A DNA stretch of 64,000 nucleotides from Boswellia sacra. Lineage: Eukaryota; Streptophyta; Magnoliopsida; Sapindales; Burseraceae. The notes below the pieces were generated by a model, which had not been told where the DNA came from, made no database searches, and saw nothing but the letters and a program-made list of their open reading frames with translations. This document shows positions 13,118-54,645 of this stretch, piece after piece (position 1 is the first letter of the stretch; the number at the start of each line of letters is the position of its first letter). The position numbers and the translations under genes were made by a program. The DNA lies in the NCBI GenBank assembly GCA_013180625.2, contig SNVD02013278.1:1-64000 (forward strand), written 5' to 3'.

Positions 13118-13499
13118 TGTTAGCCCTAAGGCTATATGATAATTTTGATGATAACAATACACATTGATTCATTGAGATTTACTAATATATTTATTTATGT
13201 GCAAGAATAAGATTATTGAAATAATTATAAAATCAAGAAGGGGTTTATTAAAATGAAGTGTTGAAGCTTAGGAGAAGACTACATGTTAAAGGCACCAAAG
13301 TTTAAGTACAAGGTTTGATTCAAGGAATGTGATATATGAGCAATGTTCTATCAATTGGTCATATATTTCTCTACAAATGTCCAAATAATGATTCTTGAGC
13401 CTTTGGAAAACTTACTCAATTTATAACATTTCATATGTTTTAAAGAAATTCAAATTTAAGTGCAAGATCGTCCAAATCATCATGCAAAGTGAAAGACAA

Positions 13500-14060
13500 A
13501 TGGAAGCAGCTGACATGAGCACCGAATACTCTTTTGGACATATCTGAGCTAGAAAAATCAAAATGACTTGATTCTTGCGGCATTAGAAAGATACTTAATG
13601 AGGAACATTTCATATGTTTTGAAAAAATTCAAATTTCAAATGGAAGGCCGACATAATTGACATGCAATTCGGTGGACTGACACAGAGAAGAAAAATCAAC
13701 TCACATGAGCACCGAATGGTGTTTTGGCCATATCTTAAGATAGAGATATCCAAATGCTTTGATTCTTAATGTTTTAGAAAGCTTATTCAAATATGAATAT
13801 CTTTTATGTTTTGAAGAAATTCAAATTTCAAACGGAAGGCTGACAGAATTATCATTCAAGTCAGTGGACTGACACATGGAAGAAAAATCAAGTCACATGA
13901 GCACCGAATGGTGTTTTGGCCATATCTTGAGCTACAGATATCCAAATGACTTGGTTCTTGATGCGTTGGAAAGTTTATTCAAATGTGCAGATCTTTTATG
14001 TTTTACAGATTTTCAAATTTCAAACGGAACATTGACAAAAATGGCAGACAAGATTACGGT
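13500..14060 (+). repeat. Three ~190-bp tandem units in the copia LTR
   Basis: Each unit carries GAGCACCGAAT, a variant of TTGGCCATATCTTGAGCTA, and then an AAATTCAAATTTCAAA-like segment followed by GGA(A)GGC(T)GACA. Units start about 190 and 192 bp apart. They lie upstream of the TATA box, where plant LTR enhancer repeats are often found. Confidence 0.75.
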
Positions 14061-14123
14061 TTTTATGGTGGGCAGAAAATTTGGAGATGGTGTCTTCACT
14101 TGATTAAGTTCATCTCATTTGCC

Positions 14124-14130
14124 TATAAAA
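14124..14130 (+). promoter_or_regulatory. TATA box of copia 5' LTR
   Basis: TATAAAA within GCCTATAAAAGGAGCC. The same box is at 20834-20840 in the 3' LTR. Transcription would start some 30 bp downstream; this is inferred from position. Confidence 0.6.
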
Positions 14131-14760
14131 GGAGCCATTCTCCCATGCATTCAATAAGTGCAAGAGAAGCATTTTATCAAGCAAAAAGCAAGAGAAATAT
14201 CAAGTCTAGAGAGCTTTTATATTCTTTATCTACTCTTTGAAGAGAGTTGTACTTTTGTTGTAAAAATTATCCTTGTTCTTGTATTGTGGTGAGAGTGAGA
14301 TATTCTTGTAAAGGATAAAAAGTTATCCTTGAGAGAACTTTTTCCTTGGTGAGGTTGTTCATCAAGAAGAACTCTTGGTGTGGTGTTATCAAGGGTTGAA
14401 GGAAAAAGTCTTGGTGAGGTTGTTCATCAAGCAAGTTGTAAAGATTTTTACAACTTAGTGGAAAGCTTAGCTCGTGGAGCTAGGAGCCAGTGGACGTAGG
14501 CAAGGTTTGCCGAACCACGTAAATTGAGTTTGCACTCTCTCTATCCCTATACTCTTAACATTTACTTGCACTTGAGATTATTTATTATTGCTATTCTCTT
14601 GATTGCTTCTTAGATAACTTCTATTTTCATCTTCTTCACTTCTATTCTCAAAAGAAAAAGTGAAATAATTTTTATCTTTCAAGAAAAGTTTTATAAATTC
14701 GTTTTGATAAATAAAACCCAATTCACCCCCCCTCTGGGGTTGTCATACCTGGGTCACAAG

Positions 14761-14771
14761 TGGATCAGAGC
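14761..14771 (+). promoter_or_regulatory. Primer binding site (initiator Met tRNA-like)
   Basis: TGGATCAGAGC, two bases after the LTR, resembles the standard plant copia primer site TGGTATCAGAGC with one T missing. Confidence 0.65.
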
Positions 14772-14849
14772 AAGGTTGCTCATTTTTTTAAATCTTAACC
14801 GATTTTGAGCTATTGGCAACTTAAGGCGTTCATATGTTGAGGGGCTTTC

Positions 14850-15880
14850 ATTTCTAGACCTCCATCTTTAATGGAAGTGATTACTCTTATTGGAAAACTA
14901 GAATGAGTATTTTCTTGAAATATTTTGATTATGATTTGTGGTCTATTGTTTTGGAAGGACCTTTTGTTCCTACCAAAATTGAAAATGGGGAATGCATGCT
15001 TAAAGAACCTAAAGCGTTTAGTGAAGATGATAAAAAGAAATTGAGTTTGAATGCTAAAGCTATGAATGTGTTATATTGTGCTCTAGATAGAAATGAGTTA
15101 ATAGAATATCTACTTGTTCTACGGCACAAGAAATATGGCACACACTTGAAGTAACTCATGAAGGAACTAGTCAAGTTAAAGAATCCAAAATTAGTATGCT
15201 AGTTCATAGTTATGAGCTTTTAAGATGAAATCGGATGAATCAATTTCTGAAATGTTTACTAGATTTACGGATATTATTAATAGTTTGAAATCTCTTGGTA
15301 AATCTTATTCTAATGTTGAAATGGTGAGAAAGATTCTTAGGTGTCTACCAAAATCTTGGGAACCAAAGGTGACGGCAATTCAAGAAGCAAAGGACCTTAC
15401 CAAACTACCATTAGAAGAACTTATGGGTTCTCTCATGACTCATGAAATCACCTTGAAGGAGAACGAAGAAGATTTCAAGAAAAAGAAAAATATCGCTTTC
15501 AAATCTTCAACAAAAGAAGATGATGAGTCCAACGATGAAGGAGATGATGAAGATCTTGCATTCATCACAAGAAAGCTAAAAAGGATGATTAGAAGAAAAC
15601 CAAGGATTCAAGAAGAACTCTAGAAGGGAGTACAAAGGGCAAAGCTCAAAGCAAGATAAGAAAAATGATCAAGTCATTTGCTATGAGTGCAAGAAACGGG
15701 ACATGTAAAGATGGATTGTCCTTACTTCAAGAGTCAAAACAAGAAATCCAAAGCAATGAAAGCCACAAATTGGGATGATAGTGAAGCTAGCTCCAACGAA
15801 GAAGAAGATTGCGAAGTGGCAAACATGGGCTTCATGGCTTTAAGTGACGATGAGGGTAAGTATTCAAAACTATGATCCTA
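14850..15880 (+). pseudogene. Copia gag (UBN2-type) with broken zinc knuckle
   Basis: The frame resumes at 14903 with MSIFLKYFDYDLWSIVLEGP, a gag/UBN2 N-terminal motif. Further right are ESISEMFTRFTDIINSLKSL and KILRCLPKSWEPK, typical of copia gag. The CCHC knuckle region at about 15680 reads CYECKK, then loses one base, and resumes as GHVKMDCPYFK. At least four frameshifts are visible: before 14903, near 15125, near 15225 and at the knuckle. An acidic Glu/Asp-rich stretch precedes and follows the knuckle. No functional gag can be made. Confidence 0.8.
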
Positions 15881-16530
15881 AGCTTTCATATGATGAATTA
15901 CTTGAAGCATTCCAAAATTTACATGTGCAAGTTGATAAACAAAATTCAAAAATCAATGCTTTCAAAAAGAAGTCAAAATTCATGTTATCTCAATTAGAAG
16001 AGTTGGTGGAAATAAATGAAGCTTTAGAAAATGAAAATGAAATTTTAAAGCAAAAAGATTTTGAAAGTTTGGAAAGTCAAATGCATTTTTTAAAAACTGA
16101 AAATGAGATTTTAAAACAAAAGGATTTGATAAATTAGAGAAAGAAAATGTTAATTTGAAAAAGGAAAATAATGACTTAAGAAATATTGTTGATAGTTTTA
16201 CAAAAAGCACAAAAATTTTGAATTCTATGTTACAAAACCAAAGGTGTGTTTTTGATAAAAGAGGTTTAGGATATAAAACTCATAAAAATCAAAAGTATTT
16301 TAAAAATTATTTTGCTCATGCATCTTTTAGGAATAATCCTAATAATTCATGTACTTATTGTGGAAGAAAAGGACACAATATGCATTCTTGCTCCATTAAA
16401 AGAAATCCTAATTTGAAACAAATATGGGTTCCAAAAAGTATCATAACTAACCCCCAAGGACCCAAGAACTTTTGGGTACCAAAAGGTTACTCCTTGAATG
16501 TTGATTGTAGAGACAAAGGAGTGGCAAACA
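15844..16530 (+). pseudogene. Copia gag-pol linker: coiled coil plus second zinc knuckle
   Basis: A Lys/Glu/Asn-rich stretch with heptad-like spacing (for example NEALENENEILKQKDFESL) is probably a coiled coil. It is followed by a CCHC knuckle at 16348-16392 reading CTYCGRKGHNMHSC. A repeated segment (ENEILKQKD, twice) lies inside the coiled coil. The frame is broken near 16135 and again before the protease. Confidence 0.6.
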
Positions 16531-16760
16531 CAAGTGGTACTTAGATAGTGGATGCTCAAGGCATATGACCGGAGATGCCTCCAAATTTTCAAGATTAATC
16601 ATGAAGAAAGGAGGATATGTGACCTTCGGTGATAATGCCAAAGGAAGTGTAATCGGACATGGTGATATGGGTAACCCTTCTTCACCTATTATTAAAGATG
16701 TTTTGCTTGTTTATGGTTTAAAACATGATTTGATTAGCATTAGTCAATTGTGTGATAAGG
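16531..16760 (+). pseudogene. Copia aspartic protease
   Basis: The active-site region reads LDSGCSRHMTG at about 16543-16573, the D-S-G motif of plant copia proteases. It is followed by GYVTFGDNAKGSVIGHG and LKHDLISISQLCDKG. A frameshift falls just upstream of the catalytic Asp, so the motif is split between frames. The frame then runs without a break into the pre-integrase region. Confidence 0.75.
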
Positions 16761-17570
16761 GATATTTTGTTACTTTTGAGCCCAATAGATGTGTGATTAA
16801 GGATGTTAGTAACAATAAGACATTATTTGTTGGTAATAGATGTGGTAATATTTATACAATTGATATTGATGCTAATGATCATGTAAAAAATTGTTTCATT
16901 GTTAATGATGATGCTTGGTTATGGCATAGAAGGTTAGGTCATGCTAGCATGGACACAATTTCAAAAATTTCTAAAAATGATTTAGTTGATGGTCTTCAAA
17001 AAATAAAATTTGAAAAGGATAAGATTTGTGATGCTTGTCAATTTGGAAAACAAGTGAGAACTTCTTTTAAACAAAAGAAATTTATTTCAACAAATAAACC
17101 TCTACAATTACGTCATTTGGATTTATTTGGACCATCAAGAACTCAAAGTCTTGGTGGAAAGTATTATGTTTTTGTTATTGTGGAGATTATTCAAGATTCA
17201 CTTGGGTGTTATTCTTGAAAACTAAAAATGAGGCCATACAAGCTTTTTCAAAATTTACAAAAAAAGAGTCCAAAATCAAAAAGGGCATTTATTGTATCCC
17301 ATTAGAGGTGATAATGGTGGGTGTGAAGGAGGGACAATGTGCATTGAAAAATCTATTGTGATGAAAATGGTTTTGAGCATAATTTTTTTTTTTTTTTTTT
17401 TTTCCTCACCTAGAAATCCACAACAAAATGGTGTTGTTGAGAGGAAAAATAGGACTATCCAAGAAATGGCTAGGACCATGTTACTTGAAAATAATTTGCC
17501 AAAATATTTTTGGGCGAAGCCATTAATACCGCATGCTTTATAATCAATAGAGTCCATATTAGAGCTTTAA
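16761..17570 (+). pseudogene. Copia integrase (GAG-pre-integrase and core)
   Basis: The His-His-Cys-Cys zinc region reads WHRRLGHASMDTISKIS followed by CDACQFGKQ at about 16920-17050. The core begins LRHLDLFGP, but the next part is scrambled by frameshifts and stops (17190-17300). A run of 25 T lies at 17378-17402, exactly before SPRNPQQNGVVERKNR, which contains the core Glu. Downstream LLENNLPKYFWAKPL is normal for copia. The catalytic Asp residues cannot be followed in one frame. Inactive. Confidence 0.8.
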
Positions 17571-18750
17571 TAAAGAAAACTCCTTATGAACTTTGGAAAG
17601 GAAGAAAACCAAAAATTGGATTTTTTAAAGTTTTTGGATGTAAATGTTTTATTTTAAACACTAAGGATAACCTTGGAAAATTTGATGCAAAGCCGATGTT
17701 GGAATTTTTGTTGGCTACTCCAACCATAGTAAAGCATATAGAGTTTTTAACAAAAAGACTCTTACTATTGAAGAATCTATGCATGTTGAATTTGATGCAA
17801 CTAATGTTATCTCTTCAAAGATTTAGATGATGATATTGTGAAGTAGAAAGGCAAATCAAGAATCAAGGCTGATGAAAAGAAGTCAGATGATTACAACTTC
17901 AACAAGAAAAAGCTGAGAAAAGTAAATGATTCTTCTCAAAGAAATTAACCAAAGGAATTGAGGTATGCCAAAAGCTCACCCCTAAAGATATTATTATTGG
18001 TGAACCATCAAAGGTATGAGAACTAGATCTTCTTTTAGAAACTTTTGTAACATTTTGCATTTGTCTCTCAATTTGAACCAAAAAACTTTTAAAGAAGAAG
18101 CCGAAAATGACGAAAGTTGGATTTTGCTATGCAAGAAAGAATTGAATCAATTTGAGAGAAATCAAGTTTGGAAATTAGTCCCAAGACCCAAAAATCATTT
18201 TATTATAGGCACTAAATGGATTTTTAGAAATAAAGTAGATGAAAATGGCACCATTATTAGAAACAAAGCTAGACTTATTGCTCAATGATACAATCAAGAA
18301 GAAGGTATTGATTATGAGGAAACCTTTGCACCGGTTGCTAGATTAGAATCCATTAGAATGTTGTGTGCATTTGCATGTTATAAAAATTTTACATTATACC
18401 AAATGGTTGTCAAAAGTGCATTTTTAAATGGTTACATTATGGAGGAAGTATATGTAGAGCAACCTCTTAGTTTTCAAAATCATGATTTTCCAAACCATGT
18501 TTTCAAACTCAAAAAGCCACTTTATGGCTTGAAACAAGCACCAAGAGCATGGTATGATAGATTGAGCAAATTTCTCATTGATAATGTTTTCGAAATAAAA
18601 AAAGTTGATACTACTCTTTTTGTTAAAACAAAAAATGATGATTTATTAATTGTTCAAATCTATGTTGATGATATTATATTTGTGCTACTAATATTTCTAT
18701 GTGTGAAGAATTTTCCAAGTGTATGCAACAAGAATTTGAAATGAGCTTAA
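17571..18750 (+). pseudogene. Copia reverse transcriptase
   Basis: A short linker (about 17580-18020) is frameshifted. Reverse transcriptase starts near 18110: WKLVPRPKNHFIIGTKWIF and NKARLIAQ, where a TGA (18286-18288) interrupts the frame. Then come YEETFAPVARLESIRM, VYVEQPLSFQN, KKPLYGLKQAPRAWYDRLSK and the catalytic YVDD motif (IYVDDIIF, about 18660). A frameshift follows the YVDD box. The motif VKSAFLNG (normally DVKSAFLNG) has Val before it, so the first catalytic Asp appears to be lost. Confidence 0.85.
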
Positions 18751-19604
18751 TGGGAGAATTAAATTTCTTCCTTGGACTTCAAATCAAGCAATCAATAGAT
18801 GGGATCTTCATTAATCAAGCTAAATACACAAGAGATTTTCTCAAGAAGTTTGGCATGGATAATTCAAGGACATATAACACACCTATGGGTACATAAACCA
18901 AGCTTGACAAAGATGAGAAAGGAAAAGATGTTGAGGTAACAAAATATCGAGGTATGATTGGCTCTCTTTTGTATTTAACTGCTAGTAGACCTGATATTAT
19001 GTTTAGTGTGTGTATGTGTGCTAGATTTCAATCTTGTCCAAAGGAATTTCACCTTAAAGCTGTCAAAAGGATATTTAGATATCTTCTTGGAACCATAAAT
19101 CTAGGTCTTTGGTATCCTAAGTGTGATAATTTTGATCTAATTAGTTATTCGGATGCGCACTTTGCTGGAAGTCTTCTTGATAGAAAGAGCACTAGTGGCT
19201 CTTGCCATTTTCTAGGACATGCATTAGTATCATGGTTTAGTAGAAAACAAAATTCTGTTGCATTATCAACCGCGGAAGCCGAGTATATTGCAGTCGGAAG
19301 TTGTTGTGCACAAGCTCTTTGGATGAAACAAATTTTAAAAGATTATGGTGTGGTATTTGATCATATTCCCATCAAATGTGACAATACAAGTGCCATCAAC
19401 ATTTCAAAAAATCCAATACAACACTCTAGGACTAAGCATATAGAGATTAGACAGCATTTTATTAGAGATCATGTGCAAAAAGGTAATATTTCTTTAGAAT
19501 TTGTTCCCACCGAGAAACAATTAGCCGATATATTTACTAAACCCCTTAGTCAAGATAGATTTAGCATAATTAGAAGAGAATTAGGCATGTTGGATATGTC
19601 TTAA
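18751..19604 (+). pseudogene. Copia RNase H and C terminus
   Basis: FFLGLQIKQS and the connection region are followed, after a stop at about 18896, by an open frame at 18954-19604. That frame reads MIGSLLYLTASRPDIMFSVC, VSWFSRKQNSVALSTAEAEY, ALWMKQILKDYG and KHIEIRQHFIRDHV, and ends DIFTKPLSQDRF. This is the typical copia RNase H end with STAEAEY. The last 216 codons are uninterrupted. Confidence 0.85.
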
Positions 19605-19826
19605 TTTTGCTTTAATATGATAATCTTTGAATGATAGCATATGTTAAGGGGGAGTAGTTAATTTGATTACATTTTTTGATGATAACAAAAGGGGGAGAAA
19701 TAGTTGGATTGCTTATATTCATAACAAGTGCCATTCTTTTGCTTATTGTTGATTTTATTTTCATTCTTGATTTTAGATTATATTTTAAAGCAATCAATGG
19801 TTTGTCATCATCAAAAAGGGGGAGAT
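19605..19826 (+). other. Copia 3' leader with polypurine tract
   Basis: Purine-rich AAAAAGGGGGAGAT (19813-19826) lies directly before the 3' LTR. Similar GGGGGAGTAG and GGGGGAGAAA tracts at about 19650 and 19691 precede it. Confidence 0.7.
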
Positions 19827-21474
19827 TGTTAGCCCTAAGGCTACATGATAATTTTGATGATAACAATACACATTGATTAATTGAGATGTACTAACATGTT
19901 TATTTATGTGCAAGAGTAAGATCATTGAAATAATTTTAAAATCAAGAAGAGGCTTATTAAAATGAAGTGTTGAAGCTAAGGAGAAGACTACATGTTAAAG
20001 GCACCAAAGTTAAGAACAAGGTTTGATTCAAGGAATGTGACACATGAGTAATGTTTAATCAATTAGTCATATATTTCTCTACAAATGTCTAAATAATGTG
20101 ATTCTTGAGCATTTGGAAAGCTTACTCAATTTATAACATTTCATGTGTTTTAAATAAATTCAAATTTCAAGTGTGCAAGATGTCCAAATCACATGCACGT
20201 TGAAAGACAAAATGGGAAGCGCTGACATGAGCACCCCGAATACTCCTTTGGACATATCTGGAGCTAGAAAAAATCAAAATAACTGCGATTCTTGCGGCAT
20301 TAGAAAGAGCTTAATCGGGCACATTTCATATGTGTTTGAAGAAATTCAATTCAAATGAAGACATAATAATGACATGCAATCGGTGGACTGACACAGAGAA
20401 GAAAAATCAACTCACATAAGACAACGAATGGTGTTTTGGCATATCTTAGATAGAGATATCCAATTGCTTTGATTCTTAATGTTTTGGAAATCTTATTCAA
20501 ATATAAAGATCTTTTATGTTTTGAAGAAATTCAAAATTCAAATGGAAAGCTGACAGAATTATCATTCAAGTCAGTGGACAGACACATGGAAGAAAAATCA
20601 AGTCACTTGAGCACCAAATGGTGTTTTGGCCATATCTTGAGCTACAGATATCCAAATGACTTGGTTCTTGATGCGTTGGAAAGCTTATTCAAATGTGCAG
20701 ATCTTTTATGTTTTACATATTTTCAAAATTCAAACGAAACATTGACAAAAATGGCAGACAAGATTACGGTTTTTATGGTGGGCAGAAAATTTAGAGATGG
20801 TGTCTTCACTTGATTAAGTTCATCTCATTTGCCTATAAAAGGAGCCATTCTCCTATGCATTCAACAAGTGCAAGAGAAGCATTTTATCAAGCAAAAAAGC
20901 CAAGAGAAATATCAAGTTTATAGAGCTTTTATATTCTTTATCTACTCTTTGAAGAGAGTTGTACTTTTGTTGTAAAAACTTTTCTTTGTTCTTATATTGT
21001 GTGAGAGTGAGATCTTCTGTAAAGGATAAAAGATATCCTTGAGAGAACTCTTTCCTTGGTGAGGTTGTTCATCAAGAAGAACTCTTGGTGTGGTGTTATC
21101 AAGAGTTGAAGGAAAAAAAGTCTTGGTGAAGTTGTTCATCAAGCAAGTTGTAAAGTATTCTACAACTTAATGGAAAGCCTAGCTTGTGGAGGAGCTAGGA
21201 GCCCGTGGACGTAGGCAAGGTTTGCCGAACCACGTAAATTGAGTTTGCACTCTCTCTATCCCTATACTATTTACATTTACTTGCACTTGAGATTATTTAT
21301 TATTGCTATTCTCTTGATTGCATCTTAAACAACTTCTATTTTCATCTTCTTCACTTCTATTCTCAAAAGAAAAAGTGAAATAATTTTTATCTTTCAAGAA
21401 AAGTTTTATAAATTCGTTTTAATAAATAAAACCCAATTCACCCCCCCTCTAGGGTTGTCATACCTGGGTCAACA
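19827..21474 (+). repeat. Copia 3' LTR
   Basis: Same structure as the 5' LTR, with TATA box at 20834-20840 and the ~190-bp internal units. Several indels are concentrated at 20170-20460. It ends GGGTCAACA and is followed by ACCATT. Confidence 0.9.
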
Positions 21475-22180
21475 ACCATTCTACTGATGATTGCCCAACT
21501 TTGCCTGCCTTTAGGGAATGTCTCCATGAAGAAGCCAATGCCTTAAACACTTTCAAAAGGCCAAATCACAATCCATATTCACAAACCTATAATCCTGGTT
21601 GGAGAAATCATCCAAATTTTAGCTGGAAAAATGACAATCATGCACAATCTTCACAAGTCCCTTTTCAAACACGACAAAATTTTCAAAATTCTCATGATCA
21701 TGCATATGCTCCTCATCCTAGGAATGACTTTGAAGAAACATTGCATTCATTCATTACAAAGCAAGAGACTTTCAATAGTCAAACTACTCAAACACTAGCA
21801 AATTTGTCAGAAAATCTTGCAAAATTTGCATCTACATTAGCATCCAAGAGAAGGAAAATCCTTCCAAACATTGCAAAACCCCAAAGGATCAATTAAACTC
21901 AAATGAGGGACGTTCAAATAACATTATTTTGACCAAGCAAGTCAGTCATGGAACCTTCGCAATGAAGGTGTTGAAAAACCATATTCATAAAACCGTGTGA
22001 GAAAGAAGGAAGAATCGATTCTCTAAAGGGCAGGAGGGTGCTGAACCAACACCTAGCGAAGAGGAAACCAAATCCTCATCTGTGCCTCCATTTCCTCAAG
22101 CATTAGCCACACAAAAGAAGCCAACTCACAATTCTGAAATCTTTAAAATTTTCAAACAGGTAAGGTCAACATTCCCTTAC
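21475..22180 (+). pseudogene. Gypsy gag, C-terminal part
   Basis: The frame reads NHSTDDCPTLPAFRE, the end of a zinc knuckle (the upstream Gly-Gly codons sit on the other side of the copia at 13104). It then continues NPYSQTYNPGWRNHPNFSWK, typical of this gypsy type, and a Gln/Asn/Thr-rich C terminus to 21896. Stops and frameshifts follow before the protease region. Confidence 0.75.
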
Positions 22181-22760
22181 TTGATGTGATCAAACAGGTA
22201 CCTTCTTATGCAAAATTTTTGAAAGACTTGTGCACTGTGAAAAGAAAACTGAATGTGAAAAAGAAGGCCTTTCTAGCTGAGCAAGTAAGTGCTATCCTTC
22301 AAAATAATAATACAGTGAAATATAAGGATCCAGGTTGTCCTACAATTTCATGTGTTATTAGAGACCATAAAATTTAACAAGCTTTACTTGATCTTGGTGC
22401 TAGTGTGAATTTGCTTCCATACTCGGTTTGTCAAAAACTCAATCTAGGTGAGTTAAAACCGACTTCTGTGACTCTTTTGCTTGCTGATAGATCAATTAAA
22501 GTACCAAGAGGAGTAGTAGAAGATGTATTAGTTCAAGTCAATAAAATTCATTTACCCAGTGGATTTTATCGTCTTGGACACACAACCAGTGGAAGTAAGC
22601 AATTCAATTCTTGTTAATTTAGGGCGTCCATTTCTAGCTACCTCTAATGCTTTGATTAATTGCAGGAATAGAGTCATGAAGCTATCATTTGGGAACATGA
22701 CATTGAAACTTAATGTTTTCAATATGTGCAAACAACCAAATGAAGAAGAAGATGAAATTG
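22181..22760 (+). pseudogene. Gypsy aspartic protease
   Basis: VPSYAKFLKDLCTVKRKL leads into the protease. The active site reads ALLDLGASVNLLPYSVCQKL at about 22380-22440, with DLG in place of the more usual DLGAS/DTGAS variants of this group. A stop precedes it (ITQALLD region, 22376) and a frameshift lies near 22560, after which DFIVLD and LGRPFLATSNALI continue. Processing activity is not possible from this copy. Confidence 0.75.
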
Positions 22761-24170
22761 ATGAGGCCAATGTAATTGAATCTATTCTGGAAGATCACAT
22801 CCAAAAAGGGAGTTCTTCTGACCCTTTGGAAACTTGTTTAGTGAATTCGTTAGAATCAAGTATGGAACTAGAACATGATCTTTCTAATATGTGTTCCTTA
22901 CTGGATTGTGCACAGGTATTGGAAAAAGGCTCAAAATCAAGATTTGAAGAATTGGGACAAATGAATGAAAGCAAGGAAGATGAAGCTCCCAAGCTAGAAT
23001 TGAAGCCCTTACCTGAAGGACTGAAATATGCATATCTTGGGGAGAATCAGACATATACGGTGGTAATTTCTTCATCCCTCACATGCGAGCAACAAGGTAA
23101 GTTGATAGAAGTGCTTAAAAGGCATAAAAATGCAATTGGGTGGACTTTAAAAGATATAAAAGGCGTTAACCCTTTAATTTGCACACATAGAATACATTTA
23201 GAGGAAAATGCCAAAACATCTCAACAACCTCAAAGGAGATTAAATCCACACATGAAAGAGGTCATTAGGGCTGAAGTTCTCAAACTACTTGATATGGGAA
23301 TTATCTATCATATTTTTGATAGTAAGTGGGTAAGCCCTACACAAGTAGTACCTAAAAAAATCTGGCATTACAGTTGTTAAAAATGAAAAGGAGGAATCAT
23401 TGCCAACTCGTGTCTCGTCTAGTTGGAGGATGTGCATTGATTATAGAAAATTAAATGCTGTCACTAGAAAAGACCATTTTCCCCTACCCTTCCTTGACCA
23501 AATTCTTGAAAGAGTAGCAGGAAACCCCTACTATTGCTTTCTTGATGGATACTCAGGCTACTATCAAATTCCCATTGCACTTGAAGACCAAGAAAAGACC
23601 ACATTCACGTGCCCCTTTGGCACCTTTGCATTTAGGAGAATGCCTTTTGGACTTTGTAATGCTCCAGCTACTTTTCAAAGATGCATGCTAAGCAATTTTA
23701 GTGACATGGTCGAGCATTGTTTAGAAGTTTTCATGGATGATTTAACTGTCTTTGGAAACTCTTTTTATAATTGTCTTGGAAACTTAGAAAAAGTCTTAAA
23801 AAGGTGTGTAGAAAAAGGTCTTATTTTGAATTGGGAAAAATGTCATTATATGGTCACTTCGGGAATTGTCTTAGGCCATGTGGTGTCTTCTAAGGGAATT
23901 GAAGTGGATAAAGCAAAAGTGGAATTAATTTCCCATTTGCCTCCACCAAAAACAGTTAAAGAGGTTCGTTCATTCTTAGGGCATGCTGGATTTTATAGGA
24001 GGTTCATAAGAAATTTCAGTGCTATATCTAAACCTCTTTGTAACCTCTTAATAAAAGATACTTCCTTTGAATGGACTCAAGAATGTCAAAATGCCTTTGA
24101 TACACTAATTGGACTTTTAACAACTGCTCCAATTATGCAATCTCCTGATTGGTCCTTGCCTTTGAATTGA
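22761..24170 (+). pseudogene. Gypsy reverse transcriptase
   Basis: An acidic linker (22740-23030) precedes the domain. Reverse transcriptase motifs follow: TQVVPKK (23340), RMCIDYRKLNAVTRKDHFPL (about 23430), FLDGYSGYYQIPI, FGLCNAPATFQRCM, the catalytic box FMDDLTVFG (about 23733), and LGHVVSSKGIEVD, KTVKEVRSFLGHAGFYRRFI. One frameshift splits the domain at about 23360 in an A-run, and another falls at the RNase H border near 24165. The catalytic residues themselves are kept. Confidence 0.85.
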
Positions 24171-24962
24171 TGTGTGATGCAAGTGACTATACCGTTGGTG
24201 CTGTCCTAGGACAAAGAAAAGAAGGTAAGCCTTATGTAATATACTATGCAAGTAGGACTTTAAATGATGCACAAATGAATTACACAACAACTGAGAAAGA
24301 ACTACTTGCAGTAGTATTTGAATTGGACAAATTTCGATCTTATTTAATTGGCTCTCCAACAATTGTTTACACTGACCATGCAGCTGTGAGATATTTAATG
24401 ACTAAACAGGATGCAAAACCTAGATTGATACGGTGGATCTTATTGCTCCAAGAATTCAACATCACAATAAAGGATAAGAAAGGAGCCGAAAATGTCGTTG
24501 CAGATCATCTTTCAAGATTAACGACAGAGACATTAATTGAAACTTCACCTTCAATGATTCTTTTCCTGCGGTAATTCGGATTGCATATGCATGACATGTA
24601 ATTTTCTATCTTTCTGTTGCTACTTGTACATTGGTGCCAAACATTGTAAATTTTCTGCGACCAGGGAAAAATGCCAACCTCATTGGAATGCTCAAGGACA
24701 AAAAGAAATTAACCGAGTGAAAAAATTTTATCGGGAGGACCCATATTGTTGCAAAATATTGTCTCAGGACCAACTAATGAGAAGATGGAAGTACCCGACA
24801 ATGAAGGAAGTAGCTGTCATTAACTTTGTCCTTTGAAGCATGTGGAGGACATCCTTTTAATCTAGAAAAACAGCTGCTAAGATCGTACAATGTGGATTTT
24901 ATTGGCCCACCTTATTTAAAGATGCACATGCATTTTGCAAAAAGTGTGAAAATTGTCAAAAA
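24149..24962 (+). pseudogene. Gypsy RNase H and linker
   Basis: [20 protein letters not shown], then [20 protein letters not shown] and [10 protein letters not shown] carry the expected Asp/Glu residues. The domain ends with VADHLSRL. The linker (24575-24960) keeps traces of the integrase zinc finger (HKFYREDPYCCK-like and CKKCENCQK at about 24940) in several frames. Confidence 0.8.
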
Positions 24963-25915
24963 TTGGGATCTATTTCAAAAAGAAACATGATGCCGTTGAA
25001 TCCCATTCTTATCGTTGAAATCTTTGACTGTTGGGGTATTGATTTTATGGGACCCTTTCCACCGTCATTTGGTTTTGTGTACATCCTTGTTGCAGTAGAC
25101 TATGTTTCAAAATGGGTCGAGGCAATTCCATGTCGAAACAATGATCACAAAACAGTTGTCAAATTCTTGAAGGAGAATATCTTAAGTAGATTTGGAATTC
25201 CTCGAGCCATTATTAGTGATGGGGGTACACATTTTTGTAACAAACCATTTGAAACTTTAATGAAGAAATATGGAATAACCCATAAAATTTCTACACCTTA
25301 TCACCCACAAACAAGTGGACAAGTTGAATTAGCTAATAGGGAGATAAAACAGATCTTAGAAAAAACGGTTAACCCAAATCGTAAAGATTGGTCTTTAAGA
25401 CTTAATGATGCACTCTGGGCTTACCGAAATGCTTTCAAAACATCATTGGGAATGTCTCCTTATAGATTAGTTTATGGAAAACCTTGTCACTTGCCAGTGG
25501 AAATTGAACATAAAGCTTAATGGGCCATTAAAACATTTAACACAAACTTGAATGATGCTTGCAAGTTACGAAAACTCCAACTGAGTGAACTTGAAGAAAT
25601 CAGGAATGAGGCTTATGAAAATTCTAAAATCTACAAAGAAAAAAATGAAGGTTTTTCATGACAAATTTATTGTTAGAAAATCTTTTGAACCTTTACAAAA
25701 AGTTCTTTTGTATGATTCAAGATTGCACTTATTTCCTGGTAAACTTCGATCACGTTGGACTGGGCCTTTCATTGTTAAAAATGTTTTCCCTTATGGAGCA
25801 GTTGAAATTGAGAACCCAAAGAATGGTAATGTGTTTAAAGTTAATGGACAACGGTTAAAACCATTCTTTCAAAATTTTGCCCAAAACGAAGAGTCCATTG
25901 CTTTAATCGATCCTT
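24940..25915 (+). pseudogene. Gypsy integrase
   Basis: The core reads [16 protein letters not shown] (first Asp), [12 protein letters not shown] (second Asp) and [18 protein letters not shown] (Glu). It continues to [21 protein letters not shown] and a TAA at 25518-25520. The C-terminal domain follows in the same frame after the stop, and at 25585-25917 as SRWTGPFIVKNVFPYGAVEI and NGQRLKPFF. No chromodomain is seen, which fits the Athila/Tat side of gypsy. The DDE residues are intact. Confidence 0.85.
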
Positions 25916-26003
25916 TTTAAGGATTGATTTTTCCCAGTCAAGTGGCGGATACGGTACTCCGTGACTATTAAAGTCGGTTTTTCAGTTCCCTAAAAACTGT
26001 TGC

Positions 26004-26591
26004 TTGCATCCATTTTCTTTTCTTCTCTCTCATTTTCTTCACATGGATACCAATCTCTCAAAATTGCACAAACATTTTCCCTCTCTTCCTCAAAATGATT
26101 TGCTTAAAATTTATACAGCTCGTGCAGAAAGTCTAAGGTTGTTGATGCGTAAGGGTATTCCTGCTGATTTAAGATGGTTAATTGAAGCCAAGGTTCGATT
26201 CTCTTGTGAGTTTTCAGATAATCTTGTTTCCCATATGCCAGGTTTGGGAAAAAGCTCTTATGCCAAAAAGCGACGAGCGAAAAGGTTACAAGTTTGTCCC
26301 AGATGTGCAAGATGGACTTGTAACCAGCGTTGCCGCTCCTTGGGATATTTGTCTAACAATCGAGAGGATAAACTACAGTTCATCAAGAATGGACTGAGTA
26401 AGGAGTCTTTGGATGATATGCGAACGACTCTTGAGACGCATTCTTGTGGACTTGTGCAGCGTGAAATTTTTAATTTGTGGACACAATTCCGAGATGAGCA
26501 CGAACGCTATAGTCTTGGGAATCTGACTCAAAACGACCCTCTTTGCCAGTTTATAAGAAAACTGGATGGGAAGCATATCCCCAACTCATAG
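26004..26591 (+). CDS. Uncharacterised 195-codon ORF downstream of pol, cysteine cluster
   Basis: An uninterrupted frame follows integrase by about 85 bp, in the place where Athila elements have an env-like or other extra ORF. I do not recognise the family. The protein is basic in its centre (SSYAKKRRAKRLQ), followed at once by CPRCARWTCNQRC, a Cys-x2-Cys-x5-Cys-x3-Cys pattern that could bind zinc. The N terminus (from Met 1 or the Met at 26043) is Ser/Phe/Leu-rich, and the C-terminal half is charged and helical in character. No clear membrane segment or signal peptide apart from the first 12 residues. It stays open although pol upstream and LOG downstream are broken. The second Met (MDTNLSKLHK) may be the true start. 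Function unknown. Confidence 0.6.
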   Translation: MHPFSFLLSHFLHMDTNLSKLHKHFPSLPQNDLLKIYTARAESLRLLMRKGIPADLRWLIEAKVRFSCEFSDNLVSHMPGLGKSSYAKKRRAKRLQVCPRCARWTCNQRCRSLGYLSNNREDKLQFIKNGLSKESLDDMRTTLETHSCGLVQREIFNLWTQFRDEHERYSLGNLTQNDPLCQFIRKLDGKHIPNS

Positions 26592-26907
26592 AAGGTGTTT
26601 AAGCCGTTTCTGGACGTAAAACCAGAGGAAGATGTGAGCCACAGTCACAAATACCTGTACATATGCATGTGTGCCATCATTTTTGAATTTTAATACCTCA
26701 TAGCTGTCATTTTTGAATTTGTATCTTTTGTTTGACTTATGGTGTCTTATTTCATCATCTTTTGACCTTTTTTTTCATTATTGTCAACTTTTTCAACAAA
26801 CAATCGAGCTACCTAGATAGATATCATCATTAACATACCTTTTTGCACTCCATAAATACCACATGTCTTGTTCTCTTCTTCACACATAGTTAGAGAGTCA
26901 CATAGAC
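26592..26907 (+). other. Spacer before LOG-like gene, with TATA-like box
   Basis: AT-rich. A short direct repeat (CATTTTTGAATTT, 26679 and 26707) is followed by CCATAAATACC at about 26851, then a 5'-UTR-like stretch CTTCTTCACACATAGTTAG before the ATG at 26908. Whether this is a promoter captured with the gene is not known. Confidence 0.4.
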
Positions 26908-27557
26908 ATGGAGGGAACTTCAAAACGTCGAATCCAAAGGATATGTGTATTCTGTGGATCTCGACCAGGTAAAAGTGAAGAGTTCGTAGAAGTAGCGAAT
27001 TATCTTGGTAGGCTACTGGCTGAAAGAAAGATTCATGTGGTTTATGGGGGAGGTAGCCTCGGGTTAATGGGTTGCGTATCAACAGCTGCACATGTAGGAG
27101 GTAGTCAAGTGTTAGGAGTTATTCCTAAAGCTTTGGCTGTAGAAAGCATTGTTGGAAAACGGTTGGGAAGGAGTTACAGGTCTCCTCTATGCATGAACGC
27201 ATGGCACATATGCTCATCAATTCAGATGCCTTTATTGCTTTACCAGGTGGCTTTGGCACTCTTGAAGAAATTTTTCAAATTGCCTCTTGGGCCCAACTGA
27301 ATCTCCATCAAAAACCCATAGGTTTGTTGAATGTCAAAAATTTCTTTGATCCTTTGATAAGTTTTGTTGATGCAGCTGTGGAACAGAATTTTATCCCTCA
27401 TTCAGCGAGAAAGATCCTTATTTTTGCCACTTCTGCTGGTGAGCTACTTGACAAATTACAAGAAGTTGAGTATGAACCTGACCCAGCTAGTACTCAAATT
27501 AATTGGGCAGGAGGGCAAAACAAAAAGTGCAAATTGGATTTGAATCTCCGTTTGTAA
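26908..27557 (+). pseudogene. LOG-like cytokinin riboside 5'-monophosphate phosphoribohydrolase, intronless, one frameshift
   Basis: LOG enzymes release active cytokinin bases from their nucleotides in the cytosol. From ATG 26908 the frame reads RICVFCGSRPGKSEEF, then VVYGGGSLGLMG (nucleotide-binding loop) and VLGVIPKAL. One base is missing in the A-run at about 27155-27159. The frame then resumes as MHERMAHMLINSDAFIALPG, with the family signature PGGFGTLEE and SWAQLNLHQKPIGLLNV, and ends LDLNLRL-TAA. Total coding length (about 216 codons) equals the plant LOG family. Plant LOG genes have several introns and this copy has none, so an mRNA-derived origin is likely. The Lys usual after MHER is Met. 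The gene lies inside the gypsy element between the extra ORF and the 3' noncoding tract. Family identity is firm; activity is excluded unless the frameshift is absent from other copies. Confidence 0.85.
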
Positions 27558-28947
27558 TTTTTTTTCTTCTTGTCCTTTATTTTATTTTATTTTACTTTTA
27601 GCATGTTATTTTATGAGTCTTTCAGGTCATCTCTCTTGAATAACAGAAGCTTCAGATAATGTCTCCTATACTTTATCTCTCTACATTTAAACATTGAGGA
27701 CAATGTTTCATTTGGTTGGGGGGGAAGGATAGTAGACATAAGTGTGTCTTGAAATTTTACTTTTTCTTGAAAAAAAAAAAAAGAAAGCGAGTTAGTAATT
27801 AGATTCAGAGTGCGGTGTAAGGAGTTCAAATCCTCTTGAGACGCATTCTGGGTCAGGAATGGCAGAGTAGGGAGGACCAGTTTGAACTCTTGAAACCCAT
27901 TCTAACCAATTTGTCATTTTATTCTTGCATTTTGAAGACTATTTGATATTATTTAGTCTTGATTTTTGAATTTTATAACAAGGAGGTCTTATTCATTTCA
28001 CTTTGAATCATTCAAATCTATGAACTCTCTCAACCTTATCATTTAATAAATTGAGTGCTTATGTGCTCATTAAGCAAGTATCTATGAATCTTTCTTCACA
28101 CACACACATACCTTGATGTATGATTGTGGGTGGCGAAATGAAATATTGCAATATTTGAGTTCTTTTGTTTTGTTTAGGAAAACAACAAAAGGAAGGGGAA
28201 AGTTAAAAAAAAATGAAAAAAATGAAAAATAAAAAAAAAGAAAAAAAAGAAAGAAAAAAAGAAAAGAAAGAAAGAGAAAAAAGAAAAAAGAAAGAAAGTA
28301 ATGGTGGATAAGTTTGGTCTTGTAGCCTCCTTAATTCGAGCAATTAAGCCCGAGGGGTGCCTCAATACCTAATACCCTAAGACCAACTGGTTTGGGAGCT
28401 ATTGGCCCAAAGCTCGCTACATGGATTAAGGAGAAAGCTTAATGGGATTGAACCTTGCACTATCCACAAGTTTCTAAGCAAAAATAAAGTATCGGCAACC
28501 CGAGTCGTTAAGCTCGTAGGGGTGTCTTAACACCTAATGCCCTAAGGCCAACTGGTCTGGGAGTCATTAGCCTAAGGCTCGCTACATGGGTTAAAGATGC
28601 ATTCTTTCAAAAAAAAAAAAAAGAGAAAAAAAAAGAAAAAAATGTATAAAATGAATGAATATCCCCTACCTAAGGTTGTTAGCCTTAACAAATACTAGAA
28701 CCGATATGGCTTATTTCTAATAAGCCCCATAGTCATGTGTCAACTGAGCACAAAAGAAGGTTTGTGGATATCTTGACTGAAGGGTACATGAGTCATATAA
28801 AAAAAAAAAATCAGTTGAGAGTTTGTTTATTTGGATAAAATCAAGGAGAGTGCAATAATGACCACCTTGGATGTAAAATTCTATAAATCACTTCTAAATA
28901 ATAACGCTTTAATTGCTAGGGACTAGCAATAAGCTAGTTGGGGGGTG
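27558..28947 (+). other. Gypsy 3' noncoding region
   Basis: It contains a G-run at 27716-27725 after GAGGACAATGTTTCATTTGG, long purine tracts (28205-28300, 28606-28640), and a tandem duplication at 28320-28600. The polypurine tract GTTGGGGGG (28937-28945) directly precedes the LTR. No gene is seen. Confidence 0.65.
28320..28600 (+). repeat. Two imperfect ~175-bp tandem units
   Basis: Both units carry TTAAGC(C/T)CG, then AGGGGTG followed by CCTAAGRCCAACTGGTYTGGGAG, and end GCTCGCTACATGG. They start near 28330 and 28500. Each is separated by purine-rich filler. Confidence 0.6.
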
Positions 28948-30335
28948 TGATGAACACTTAAATATGCATGTTTAATAAGAGTTTAGTTCATCATATTGCA
29001 TTAATAGTGTCATTAAATTCCTCAACTTAAGCATATTTGTAGCATTTGCATCTTTGGAATTAATTTCTCTTAATTTTGGTTTTGTTACAGGTTCGGTAAA
29101 ATGGGCATAACTCTCTATTTATAGATCAGAATGGTGCAATTCTTAATGTTTTGGAAAGCTGATTCAATTGTCTACAAGATTGCATTTCACAAGCATCATC
29201 AAATTCGGGCTCTTAGTGGACCAAAATTGGGCTTGAAGTGAACCCATCTACAGTCTCGGCCCAGTCTGACCAGGCCTCAGTATTTGGACTGTATCTCTCA
29301 AAATACGTATCCAAATTGTGCAAATCAATATGTTCTAGAAAGCTGAGAGAAATATCTACAACTTTCATGAAGACATGTGATTAAAATTCACAACATTTCA
29401 ATGTCAAAATTGATGGTCAAAGTCGGTGCCTAATGATCCCAATTGTCAAAGATATTTACAACTAATATTTGACAATTATGCCCTTGTAATTTGACAAGTT
29501 TGCCCCTGGATGTATCTATAAATAGAGGTGCCTTGTGACCCATTAGGGCATCTTGGCCTTGGCTGGAACATTTTGGCTTTGGCTAGGATCTTGTATTGTG
29601 TTTTGTGGTTTTATGTTATTAATGAATTTCCTTTTTCTTGCATTTTATTTTCTTTCTATTATAATGTTCTTCTAATTTCTCTTTTGCTAAGGTGAAAGGG
29701 TGAAACCCTTGATATGAGAATAAGGATTCTCTAACCCTTAATATATGCTTAATAATCTTAATCTTATAATGTTTATTCAATATGATTTATATTTAATTTC
29801 TTAATCAATCTTGACACCACTCGTAAAGTGGAGGTCTTGATCCATTGTCGACAATCCTTGGCACATCAAATGCTTGGATCCTTTCTAGATGATGTATGGT
29901 TCTTCCTTACCGACACGAATCTAGTTAGGAACCTTGATTTGTTGTAGACATATGGTGATTGGCACATTGGATGCTTGAACCCATTTACAAGAAGTGGTAT
30001 AAATATTGGTAATGAAACAAATATAATTCATATAACTAAAATGGGTTAATTATCCTTATTCGAAATATCAAGGGCGGATCCCCTAACCTTAGCTTTCATT
30101 ATTATTGTGTTAATTTCTTTTACTTGCGTATTTTAATCATTCTCATCTATTGTTGATATTATCTTGTCATATCTTCGAATCATCCATATCACATTTGCTT
30201 AACTTATAATTTGTAGCGCTAAAATCTCCTTCCTCGTGGATCGACCCCGGTCTCACCGGGTTTATTACTTCGACACTCCTATACTTGGGAGACAATCCTT
30301 TTTCGGATGTGTCAAGTCCTTATCAATAATCATCA
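28948..30335 (+). repeat. Gypsy 3' LTR
   Basis: It starts TGATGAACACTTAAATATG after the polypurine tract and probably ends AATAATCATCA, giving TGATGA/TCATCA inverted ends. A TATA-like TATAAATAGAGG lies at 29516-29527. A related, rearranged copy lies on the minus strand at 63350-64000. The downstream target site (TGTAG) cannot be paired, because the 5' side is lost. Confidence 0.75.
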
Positions 30336-39345: not shown

Positions 39346-39954
39346 CTACATTCCCTTAGTACCATTCAAAATAGAAGCAAGCGCTCCCAAGACGGTGAAA
39401 GCTAATAACGGGCTGACATCCAAGGTATCAAAAATCGGAGGGATTATATTCCTAAACAGATTCAAATAGGGATCACACAAGTCCCGAATCGCTGAAAGCG
39501 GTTGTCGGTCCCACGGAATGTTGGGAAACCAGCTCAGCAGAACCCTAACCAGCAAAACCCCACTGTAGATATCCAGCCACTTGGCCAGTCCCGCTGCCAC
39601 AACCGTCAGCGGCGTGTTGAGGGTCCCAGTCGGTCGGTCGCGCAGCGTCGCGAAGAACAACGGACCCGCCGAGAGGGCCAAATTGTTTGGTAAAAACGAG
39701 TGGGGATTTGGAAGGTGAGAGAGAGCGGATTTCAGGAGCAACCCGGATAGAGAGAAGAGCACGGTGAGGGTGCGAGTTGATTGGGTGAGTAGAGGGGAGC
39801 GAGTGGGGGGTTTGAGAGTCAAGGGAGGAAGAGAGGTGGAAGAGGAGGCTCTCATGGGAAGGAGAGGGGGAGAGATTTGGCGGTGGGAATGGTAGGGGAT
39901 TCTAGGGTTAGGGTTTGGGGCTCCAAGGGAGAGAAGAGCAGCCACAGAAGCCAT
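39346..39954 (-). CDS. YLMG1: YlmG/YGGT-family protein, chloroplastic (YLMG1-like)
   Basis: YlmG proteins are small membrane proteins of cyanobacterial origin. In Arabidopsis a YLMG1 member sits in the thylakoid and influences nucleoid distribution in chloroplasts. The frame gives 202 residues from the ATG at 39954-39952. I prefer this over a start at 40095, because MASVAALLSL begins a Ser/Pro-rich transit-peptide-like N terminus and the upstream extension is AT-rich and unlike the family. The YGGT domain lies in the C-terminal half: GLAKWLDIYSG, VLLVRVLLSWFPNIPWDRQP, AIRDLCDPYLNLFRNIIPP and DVSPLLAFTVLG, with two hydrophobic helices. A hydrophobic stretch near residue 65 (LTVLFSLSGLLL) may be a third. 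No intron, stop or frameshift. It is richer in G+C than its surroundings. An inverted-repeat element begins about 160 bp upstream. Confidence 0.9.
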   Translation of the reverse strand: MASVAALLSLGAPNPNPRIPYHSHRQISPPLLPMRASSSTSLPPLTLKPPTRSPLLTQSTRTLTVLFSLSGLLLKSALSHLPNPHSFLPNNLALSAGPLFFATLRDRPTGTLNTPLTVVAAGLAKWLDIYSGVLLVRVLLSWFPNIPWDRQPLSAIRDLCDPYLNLFRNIIPPIFDTLDVSPLLAFTVLGALASILNGTKGM

Positions 39955-40115
39955 TTGGTAAGTACAGGGAGGAAGCGATGAAGAAGCTGACGACGATGAG
40001 AGGATTTTGGTTTCTATTATGGTTGGCCTATTTTCTACCCTTACAATAATTTCGTTTAAAACACTAATAACCAAAATATCTTTAAATAAAATCACCTAAC
40101 AGATGAGACAAAAAA
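39955..40115 (-). promoter_or_regulatory. Remaining proximal upstream region of the YlmG gene
   Basis: Only about 160 bp lie between the start codon and the arm of the inverted-repeat element at 40116. No clear TATA box is seen. The 5' UTR and any core promoter must lie here or within the inserted element; this is inference. Confidence 0.4.
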
Positions 40116-49090: not shown

Positions 49091-49500
49091 ATAATTTAAA
49101 TGGTACAAGTTAAGGTCTAAATAGTCTTAAGACCTATTTAGATCCAAAAGTTTTAAGTGAAAAAAATACACTCCTTAATATCATTTTTTTGGACAAAAAT
49201 ATTCCTTTTACTTAAAATAAGAAAACTCTTTCATTCTTCTTCTACAATAAGACTCACTTCCCATTCAAAGTACTAAGAAACTATATTTCTTTGTTTATCT
49301 ATATCTCTTTTTTTCTCTAATTTTTTTAAGTTTTCTTTCCTTTTCTTTTAATTTTTTCCCCTTCCTTCTTGGTTACTTTTGAAGACTCCATTCTCGATCA
49401 ATTTGGTTTTAGAGCCTAATCTTGATTTTAGAGCCTAATTTTGATCACTCACTTCCAAACCCATTGATGTCCCATTGATATGAAGAGAAGAAGAGCGGCC
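49091..49500. other. Left flank of the chromovirus
   Basis: Pyrimidine-rich sequence. A segment at about 49366-49410 (GGTTACTTTTGAAGACTCCA and onward) has a close match on the other side of the chromovirus at about 55964-55995. Confidence 0.45.
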
Positions 49501-50045
49501 TGTCACGAGCTTAGAGGTTTGTGCAGCACGCTCGTGCGGCACTTAGGTAACTTGAACTCAAAAGTTGTTAAGTAAGCCTAGTGATTGCCTTCTCGCTCAA
49601 GGAGAAAAGAGGATCGTTGAGCCAAAGAGCTTTGTAGGCAAGTAGAGAAGAGATAGAGACAAGTATTGCTAAGCAAGAGAGCTTTGTATTACACAAGAAA
49701 GCTTTACAATGTTTTGCTTTGTATTTGCTTGGATGGCTTGGATGCTTGGATGATTTACAAATGAGCATTGGAGGGGTTTATATAGTGAACTACCTCTCAA
49801 ATGAATGGCTAAGATCTAATACATCTAAGGGTCGTAATTCATTATCATCTACTAAATTATCTAGATATGTATAAGAGAGTATTATTTACTAAATTATCTA
49901 GATAAATACAAGAGATAATTCTAGAAACTTATCTTGTTAGAGAATTCTAGAAGATGGGCTTGGGCTTGTAAGCTTTCTAAAAGCTAGGCCAAGCCTCTAG
50001 GCATATTTGGGCCACTCTAACAAATAAATTGGGTGGGTCGTAACA
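49501..50045 (-). repeat. Chromovirus 3' LTR
   Basis: Plus-strand ends are TGTCACGAGC and GGTCGTAACA. Directly right of it, on the minus strand, TCAGGTGGGAGAGGA (50060-50046) is the polypurine tract. Confidence 0.9.
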
Positions 50046-50089
50046 TCCTCTCCCACCTGATTCTACGACGTCCTCGGTGTGTCTTGTCC

Positions 50090-50508
50090 TTGTAGCGTCG
50101 GATGTGCTCGCCAAATTACCACAAGACGTCTTCGCGTTCCCAACTTGTCTCACTATCTGGAAGGTTTTTCCACTTTACCAAGTATTCAGTGTATGGTGAA
50201 ACTCTTCTCCTTCATATCACACGCTCTGCAAGGATGCATTCCACGTCTTTGTCGAATGCAGTGACGATGGCTGTGGGTGCTCTCTTGAACTCGCTTCTAC
50301 TTGGATCTTCATTCTCTTCATAATAGGGCTTTAGAAAACTCACATGGAAGACCGGATGGATCTTGAGGTTGGGTGGCAATTGAACTTTGTAGGAGACTTC
50401 GCCTACTCGCTTGACAATAGGGAAGGGACCTTCGTATTTCCGTACCAACCCCTTGTGTACTTTACGAAGTGACTTGTATTGTTGGAGTAGTAGCTTGATA
50501 AGCACCAA
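50090..50508 (-). pseudogene. Integrase C terminus and chromodomain remnant
   Basis: The frame from 50508 reads VHKGLVRKYEGPFPIVKRVG, VSYKVQLPPNLKIHPVFHVS and FLKPYYE, the integrase C-terminal domain of chromoviruses. It then reaches the chromodomain start (CILAERVI), where a TGA interrupts it (50209-50211). Beyond the stop, YEGEEFHHTL is followed by a small frame change and the remains of the usual VKWKNLPDSETSWE region. The chromodomain normally steers integration to heterochromatin; this copy cannot make it. Confidence 0.75.
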
Positions 50509-50604
50509 GCCCCCCTTTTGAAATGCGAGGTGTCATCTCATAGTGTTCGCCCATTTCTTCATTTTCTTGGCGGCCTTGTCCAAGGAAGCTCTTGTAATGT
50601 CGGC

Positions 50605-53004: not shown

Positions 53005-53016
53005 CCCCCGTTTGAA

Positions 53017-54627: not shown

Positions 54628-54645
54628 GCTCTTGTGCTCGAACTG

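What the first reader, a model, noticed from the sequence alone, without database searches (positions are those of the whole stretch)
26908..27557. A LOG-type cytokinin-activating gene carried inside a gypsy retrotransposon
The sequence shows an intronless, nearly full-length LOG-like coding region (YGGGSLGLMG, MHER, PGGFGTLEE) between the post-pol ORF and the 3' noncoding tract of an Athila-like element. It has a single one-base lesion. Plant LOG genes are normally split by several introns, so the copy was probably acquired from mRNA. If other copies of this element carry it open, the retrotransposon may spread, or once have spread, a gene for hormone activation.
Basis: partly seen in the sequence, partly recalled or inferred. 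Interest (0 to 1): 0.88.

Follow-up and report, generated by a model that had tools for sequence, protein, structure and literature searches.

The report
Retrotransposon carrying LOG and virus-type genes
A family of plant jumping genes carries, in many copies, an intron-free relative of a plant hormone-activating enzyme beside a plant-virus-type nucleic-acid-binding protein, and this pair likely helps the element to copy itself in its host.

Summary
Confirmed and enlarged. Window 26908-27557 is an intronless LOG-family frame with a one-base lesion, near the 3' end of a 5'-truncated Ty3/gypsy element. It is no one-off. In the same 639-Mb plant genome the retro-LOG motif occurs 5,574 times; the host-type motif occurs 15 times, in genes split into exon pieces. 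Of 30 copies read, 21 have a full-length open LOG frame, and all 29 with enough upstream DNA have the neighbouring ORF or its remains. That ORF is a carlavirus-type nucleic-acid-binding protein (NABP), not env. Annotated fusions join NABP with LOG, pol or both in other plants. LOG variants shared between copies are mostly synonymous; private ones are not (p=0.0007). The retro-LOG rows tested form one clade apart from host LOGs. Of 120 listed homologues 103 keep the catalytic set, but 117 replace the pocket Lys/Glu pair, so cytokinin activation is not assured. A second form has gag, NABP and LOG but no pol. LOG domains in Citrus and Populus gypsy elements are in print; the NABP link was not found in our searches.

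The parts
21475..25920 (+). gag remnant, protease, RT, RNase H and integrase of the gypsy element (several frames, decayed); front of gag and 5' LTR absent from the window
   Evidence: Pfam RVT_1, RT_RNaseH, rve; tblastn with element proteins; 95% identity to copy L053 from 21475 on
26043..26591 (+). NABP: intact 182-aa ORF of carlavirus nucleic-acid-binding type, with a basic stretch KKRRAKR and a Cys cluster C-x2-C-x4-C-x3-C
   Evidence: PF05515 E 6.3e-8 and PF01623 E 5.2e-7; 24 and 22 of 25 aligned homologues match PF01623 and PF05515; alignment
26592..26665 (+). sequence just after the NABP stop, conserved between the window and L005 beyond what the NABP codons show
   Evidence: pairwise alignment; no unusual RNA fold (z -0.43)
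26908..27557 (+). LOG-family frame, intronless, one-base lesion near 27155-27188
27558..28947 (+). 3' noncoding tract ending in the polypurine tract (GTTGGGGGGTG)
   Evidence: sequence and the same junction in 8 elements
28948..30314 (+). 3' LTR, TG...CA
   Evidence: matched at both ends of 8 elements of the same genome; ends read

Best explanation
A Ty3/gypsy retrotransposon lineage of flowering plants carries between integrase and 3' LTR two accessory genes, a carlavirus-type nucleic-acid-binding protein and an intronless LOG-family enzyme; both show the mark of purifying selection, and together they likely make the host cell more permissive for copying of the element. Shown here: the architecture, the multi-copy spread, open frames, one clade of retro-LOGs, kept catalytic residues and changed pocket residues. 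Inferred: LOG came from a host mRNA, probably once. Inferred from viral relatives: NABP enters the nucleus, binds nucleic acid and weakens small-RNA silencing. Inferred: LOG is an active phosphoribohydrolase on nucleoside 5'-monophosphates with an altered base pocket, which shifts cytokinin or another nucleotide signal towards dividing, transcriptionally open cells. Unknown: how the two ORFs are expressed.
For: IN-NABP-LOG order in this genome and in fused gene models of other plants. Both LTRs in 8 elements, LTR divergence 0.9-2.8%, perfect 5-bp target duplications in 5 of 8. LOG open in 21 of 30 copies, NABP in 13 of 30. Shared versus private variants: LOG 13 syn/5 non against 15/42, p=0.0007; NABP 15/15 against 31/79, p=0.03. 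NABP dN/dS 0.25 against L005. Retro-LOGs one clade, 100/97. NABP and LOG distances correlate, r 0.62, 1 of 5000 permutations as high. A pol-less form keeps gag, NABP and LOG. A carlavirus relative, p12, is a silencing suppressor and transcription activator (PMC7588395, abstract and passages).
Against: No expression or activity data. With transversions only, the LOG variant test is not significant (4/20 against 2/1, p=0.11). Pocket Lys100 and Glu125 are replaced in 117 of 120 listed LOGs; alanine changes at the adenine-pocket residues of a bacterial LOG nearly abolished activity (PMC4979012, section 6). 10 of 13 Orobanche fused models have lost Arg99 and two Citrus models the PGGxGTxxE motif. 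One NABP-bearing relative, L005, shows no LOG by tblastn. The four retro-LOG models tested score below the cut-off of the NCBIfam model for cytokinin phosphoribohydrolase. The NABP model was too poor for a fold test.
Confidence: 0.55

Rival explanations
1. The retro-LOG is an ordinary cytokinin-activating enzyme, and the element spreads hormone activation as such.
For: Catalytic Arg99/Glu122 and the nucleotide motif kept in 103 of 120 listed homologues; constraint on LOG; Acer and Xanthoceras copies keep even the pocket pair.
Against: Lys100/Glu125 replaced together in 117 of 120, one change on the tree, in a pocket described for adenine and prenyl binding (PMC4979012).
Confidence: 0.25
2. LOG and NABP are inert passengers that multiply only because the element does.
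For: Lesions in the window copy and in 9 of 30 LOG frames; catalytic residues lost in Orobanche and Citrus models; LOG not found in L005; LTR elements often pick up gene pieces.
Against: Excess of synonymous among shared variants; full-length open relatives at 60-72% identity in many species; both genes kept in a form that lost pol.
Confidence: 0.12
3. The NABP is an old retrotransposon or plant gene that carlaviruses acquired, not the reverse.
For: It is widespread in elements of rosids and asterids (grouping of the plants recalled); no tool here gave viral sequences for a rooted tree.
Against: The matched Pfam families are described as viral, and capture of RNA-virus genes by retrotransposons is known in insects (PMC5563155, passages).
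Confidence: 0.2

Closest known systems
Ty3/gypsy elements of Citrus and Populus with a YgdH (LOG) domain (PMC9289625, section 12 read; it cites Steinbauerova et al. 2011, not held)
   Same: LOG-type domain in gypsy elements of two genera that also turn up here
   Different: That text gives no partner gene, clade, selection, pocket or copy analysis; the word carlavirus does not occur in it
Athila lineage of Ty3/gypsy (PMC6317226, passages)
   Same: Ty3/gypsy RT, RNase H and IN, no chromodomain, extra ORFs after pol, large noncoding regions
   Different: The extra ORFs are NABP and LOG; Athila ORF-1 (PF03078) was not found in the ORFs scanned
Phalaenopsis gypsy elements with an AlkB-type m6A RNA demethylase (PMC9289625)
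   Same: An accessory enzyme gene fixed in a gypsy lineage and kept over many copies
   Different: Other enzyme, one orchid genus, no viral partner gene
Insect LINEs with an RNA-virus helicase (PMC5563155, passages)
   Same: Retrotransposon with a domain of RNA-virus type, silencing suppression proposed
   Different: Non-LTR elements of insects, replicase helicase instead of NABP, no host enzyme
Carlavirus NABP / p12 (PMC7588395, PMC12172455, passages)
   Same: Pfam families, basic stretch and Cys cluster
   Different: Longer (182 aa), in a retrotransposon; activity untested
Gag-only non-autonomous LTR elements (TR-GAG; name recalled, paper not held)
   Same: LTRs plus gag without pol in the short form
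   Different: Also carries NABP and LOG

Membership tests
LOG phosphoribohydrolase family | Family profile (PF03641, TIGR00730) | tested here: met
   PF03641 E 2.6e-30 for the window's C-terminal half; TIGR00730 172-180 bits, cut-off 96, in four relatives; the window half alone scores 92.6, just below
LOG phosphoribohydrolase family | PGGxGTxxE motif with the proposed catalytic Arg and Glu | tested here: met
   Present in the window; Arg99, G, T, Glu121 and Glu122 kept in 103 of 120 listed homologues
Cytokinin-activating LOG | Lys100 and Glu125 of the adenine/prenyl pocket | tested here: not met
   Met and Gln in the window; replaced in 117 of 120
Cytokinin-activating LOG | Score above the NCBIfam equivalog cut-off (NF058542) | tested here: not met
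   110-124 bits in four relatives and 53 for the window half, cut-off 300; no plant host LOG was scanned for comparison
Cytokinin-activating LOG | Hydrolysis of cytokinin riboside monophosphates | not testable with these tools
   needs an enzyme assay
Carlavirus-type NABP (PF01623, PF05515) | Pfam scores above the curated cut-offs | tested here: met
   30.0 bits (cut-off 20.9) and 33.3 bits (cut-off 23)
Carlavirus-type NABP (PF01623, PF05515) | Same fold | tested here: inconclusive
   model pLDDT 52; no PDB sequence match to the profile
Carlavirus-type NABP (PF01623, PF05515) | Silencing suppression or transcription activation | not testable with these tools
   needs a bench assay
Athila lineage of Ty3/gypsy | Ty3/gypsy pol without chromodomain and without a second (archaeal-type) RNase H | tested here: met
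   RVT_1, one RT_RNaseH, rve; no Pfam family in the integrase C-terminus; in the long copy L053 only H2C2 and rve after the RNase H part
Athila lineage of Ty3/gypsy | Position in a tree of RT, RNase H and IN | not tested
Gag-only non-autonomous LTR element | Two LTRs, primer binding site, gag, no pol | tested here: met
   6 of 8 elements with both LTRs: about 2.7-3.2 kb from 5' LTR to LOG, gag-type frame but no pol

The most novel reading that the evidence does not exclude
A retrotransposon lineage spread through rosids and asterids carries a two-gene host-conditioning cassette: a silencing suppressor of RNA-virus type and a host hormone enzyme re-tooled to a new nucleotide substrate. The cassette, with its LTR, is handed by recombination to gag-only elements, which multiply it without any pol of their own.
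Probability: 0.3. Interest if true: 0.92.

Novelty: new variant of a known kind. Interest (0 to 1): 0.82.

Why it matters
Extra ORFs of plant gypsy elements most often lack known domains (PMC9289625, passage), and what they do is open. Here are two with recognisable relatives, linked, multi-copy, under constraint and open in present-day copies, so their function can be tested directly. If the NABP suppresses silencing, plant LTR elements would share a counter-defence with RNA viruses. If the LOG acts on cytokinin or another nucleotide signal, a transposon would be altering host signalling with very many gene copies, and some 'LOGL' genes in plant annotations would be element genes.

Tried and rejected
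One-off retrocopy: rejected, LOG lies at the same place in other copies and in fused models of other species. Env-like ORF: rejected, it is NABP. Viral-contig scans: none for NABP, four distant LOGs for LOG. PDB profile search for NABP: none. NABP model too poor, so no fold search was run. Rfam: only one SAM riboswitch hit below its gathering score. Equal contig lengths as a sign of linkage: 7 exact pairs, but a jitter control reached that in 19 of 2000 draws (mean 2.3); only the 8,723-base pair was used, as an inference. misread minus-strand loci and is replaced. The NABP count was misaligned and is replaced (24 of 30 rows kept). Six of 15 host loci were too incomplete for the tree; one Orobanche row was left out and 4 rows had no state. 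LOG dN/dS between the two motif variants could not be done: the fetch did not complete.

Full report
What is there. Window 26908-27557 encodes a LOG-family protein in two overlapping frames split by a one-base lesion. It follows the RT, RNase H and integrase of a Ty3/gypsy element and precedes a noncoding tract, a polypurine tract and a 3' LTR at 28948-30314. The window copy lacks its 5' LTR and the front of gag: its internal part is 95% identical to the longer copy L053 only from 21475 on, where a Ty1/copia element ends. Between integrase and LOG lies an intact 182-aa ORF (26043-26588) that matches two viral families above their cut-offs, Carla_C4 and Viral_NABP. Of 25 aligned sequences (the window's and 24 of the 120 listed homologues), 24 and 22 match them.

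The same architecture elsewhere. A search aimed at gene models longer than the NABP alone gave 40. Of these, 23 also hold a LOG domain (Orobanche gracilis and minor, Citrus x changshan-huyou, Rhamnella, Acer, Primulina, Henckelia), 10 a pol or protease domain (Citrus sinensis, Melia, Populus nigra, Orobanche minor, Primulina, Henckelia), 2 of them both (Primulina, Henckelia), and 9 neither. Distances of NABP and LOG correlate across 11 paired sequences (r 0.62; 1 of 5000 permutations as high); one of the pairs rests on equal contig length only. L005, a 3.3-kb contig filed under a bacterial MAG but of plant-element type, has integrase and NABP and no LOG by tblastn.

The same genome. The assembly has 639 Mb. 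A 24-base degenerate pattern for the retro-LOG motif gives 5,574 places and none in the control. These are motif matches, not checked one by one. The host-type motif gives 15 and none in the control, and all 15 lie in at least two exon pieces. The 30 loci cut out of the 40 best matches to the window's LOG (2,737 first-look candidates) include the window itself. 21 of 30 have an open frame of about 216 aa (one of them starts with ATT), 13 an NABP frame of at least 180 aa, 10 both; NABP homology lies upstream in 29, and the 30th is cut by a contig end. To avoid choosing by LOG, 8 of the 39 other integrase hits listed were read where LOG should be: 8 of 8 have it, 2 of 8 open.

Mobility and two forms. 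Both LTRs were found for 8 elements picked from the 30. LTR pairs differ by 0.9-2.8%, and 5 of 8 have perfect 5-base target duplications; two do not and one end is unresolved. Two of the 8 are long (about 6.6 kb from 5' LTR to LOG) and six short (about 2.7-3.2 kb). The short form has a gag ORF, NABP and LOG but no pol. Frames of 600 aa or more in its gag part are seen in 4 of the 6, one of them running into NABP. In the short copy L051 the gag part is about 72% identical to that of the long copy L053, but leader, NABP and LOG start are 98% identical; the part shared with the window begins at 25930, just after the integrase frame. I read this as exchange of the 3' module between two element lineages. 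Of 30 loci, 18 have integrase and 10 the gag tail before NABP; 2 could not be classed.

Selection. Among the 30 copies LOG shows 15 synonymous and 42 amino-acid variants private to one copy, against 13 and 5 shared by two or more (p=0.0007). This is expected if copies decay freely after insertion while the replicating lineage is constrained. NABP shows 31/79 against 15/15 (p=0.03, 24 of 30 rows). With transversions only, LOG gives 4/20 against 2/1 (p=0.11). NABP against L005 has dN/dS 0.25, the integrase core 0.08. Gag of the short against the long form has 0.37.

LOG itself. 23 retro-LOG rows form one clade (100/97) apart from 9 host LOGs of this genome and two from Arabidopsis. Of the 120 best homologues listed (7,952 matched), 103 keep Arg99, the second G and the T of the motif, Glu121 and Glu122. 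In 117 of 120 both Lys100 and Glu125 are replaced, mostly by Ile, Met or Leu and by Gln or His; the 3 that keep one keep the other. On a tree built with these two sites masked this needs one change (95/90; one change in 94% of 200 bootstrap trees), with Acer and Xanthoceras on the unchanged side. In a bacterial LOG, Lys100 is placed at the adenine and with Glu125 in the proposed prenyl pocket (PMC4979012, section 6 read). The change is therefore predicted to alter substrate choice. In 10 of 13 Orobanche fused models and two Citrus ones even catalytic residues are lost.

How it likely works. Carlavirus p12 activates host transcription in the nucleus and suppresses silencing in the cytoplasm (PMC7588395, abstract and passages). 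A retroelement with such a protein could blunt the small-RNA silencing that controls it; the insect LINE helicase is a precedent (PMC5563155, passages). A LOG-type enzyme could add a shift in nucleotide or cytokinin signalling towards dividing cells. Both steps are inference.

What is known. YgdH (LOG) domains in gypsy elements of two Citrus species, and of Populus trichocarpa below that paper's five-copy filter, were reported in PMC9289625 (section 12 read), which cites Steinbauerova 2011 (not held). The NABP partner was not found in the paper searches, whose library holds open-licence papers only.

Noticed in passing
window 13118-21474: Ty1/copia element with two LTRs (93% identical) whose 3' end abuts the gag remnant; the DNA on its 5' side does not match the gag of the full copy L053, so the gypsy 5' part is lost, not just interrupted.
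   Followed up: partly
window 63358-64000, minus strand: A second, about 78% identical and rearranged piece of the same type of LTR.
   Followed up: partly
window 49500-55205, minus strand: Another LTR retrotransposon with gypsy-type pol ORFs and LTRs 94% identical.
   Followed up: no
window 39346-40095, minus strand: Plant gene-like ORF of 249 aa that resembles a chloroplast YGGT/YLMG protein (recalled, not searched).
   Followed up: no
window 26592-26665: The DNA after the NABP stop is better conserved towards L005 than the NABP codons, and reads on in frame in Acer gene models; it may be a cis element or a read-through tail.
   Followed up: partly
L005: Contig filed under a Nomurabacteria MAG that is almost surely plant DNA: its integrase and NABP match a Melia azedarach gene model (P0260).
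   Followed up: partly
P0012-P0119 (proteins): Reevesia, Diplodiscus and Pterospermum annotations hold many retro-LOG-type 'genes' on many chromosomes (one Pterospermum cluster has 327 members); Populus LOGL10 entries (P0054, P0084) fall in the same clade.
   Followed up: partly
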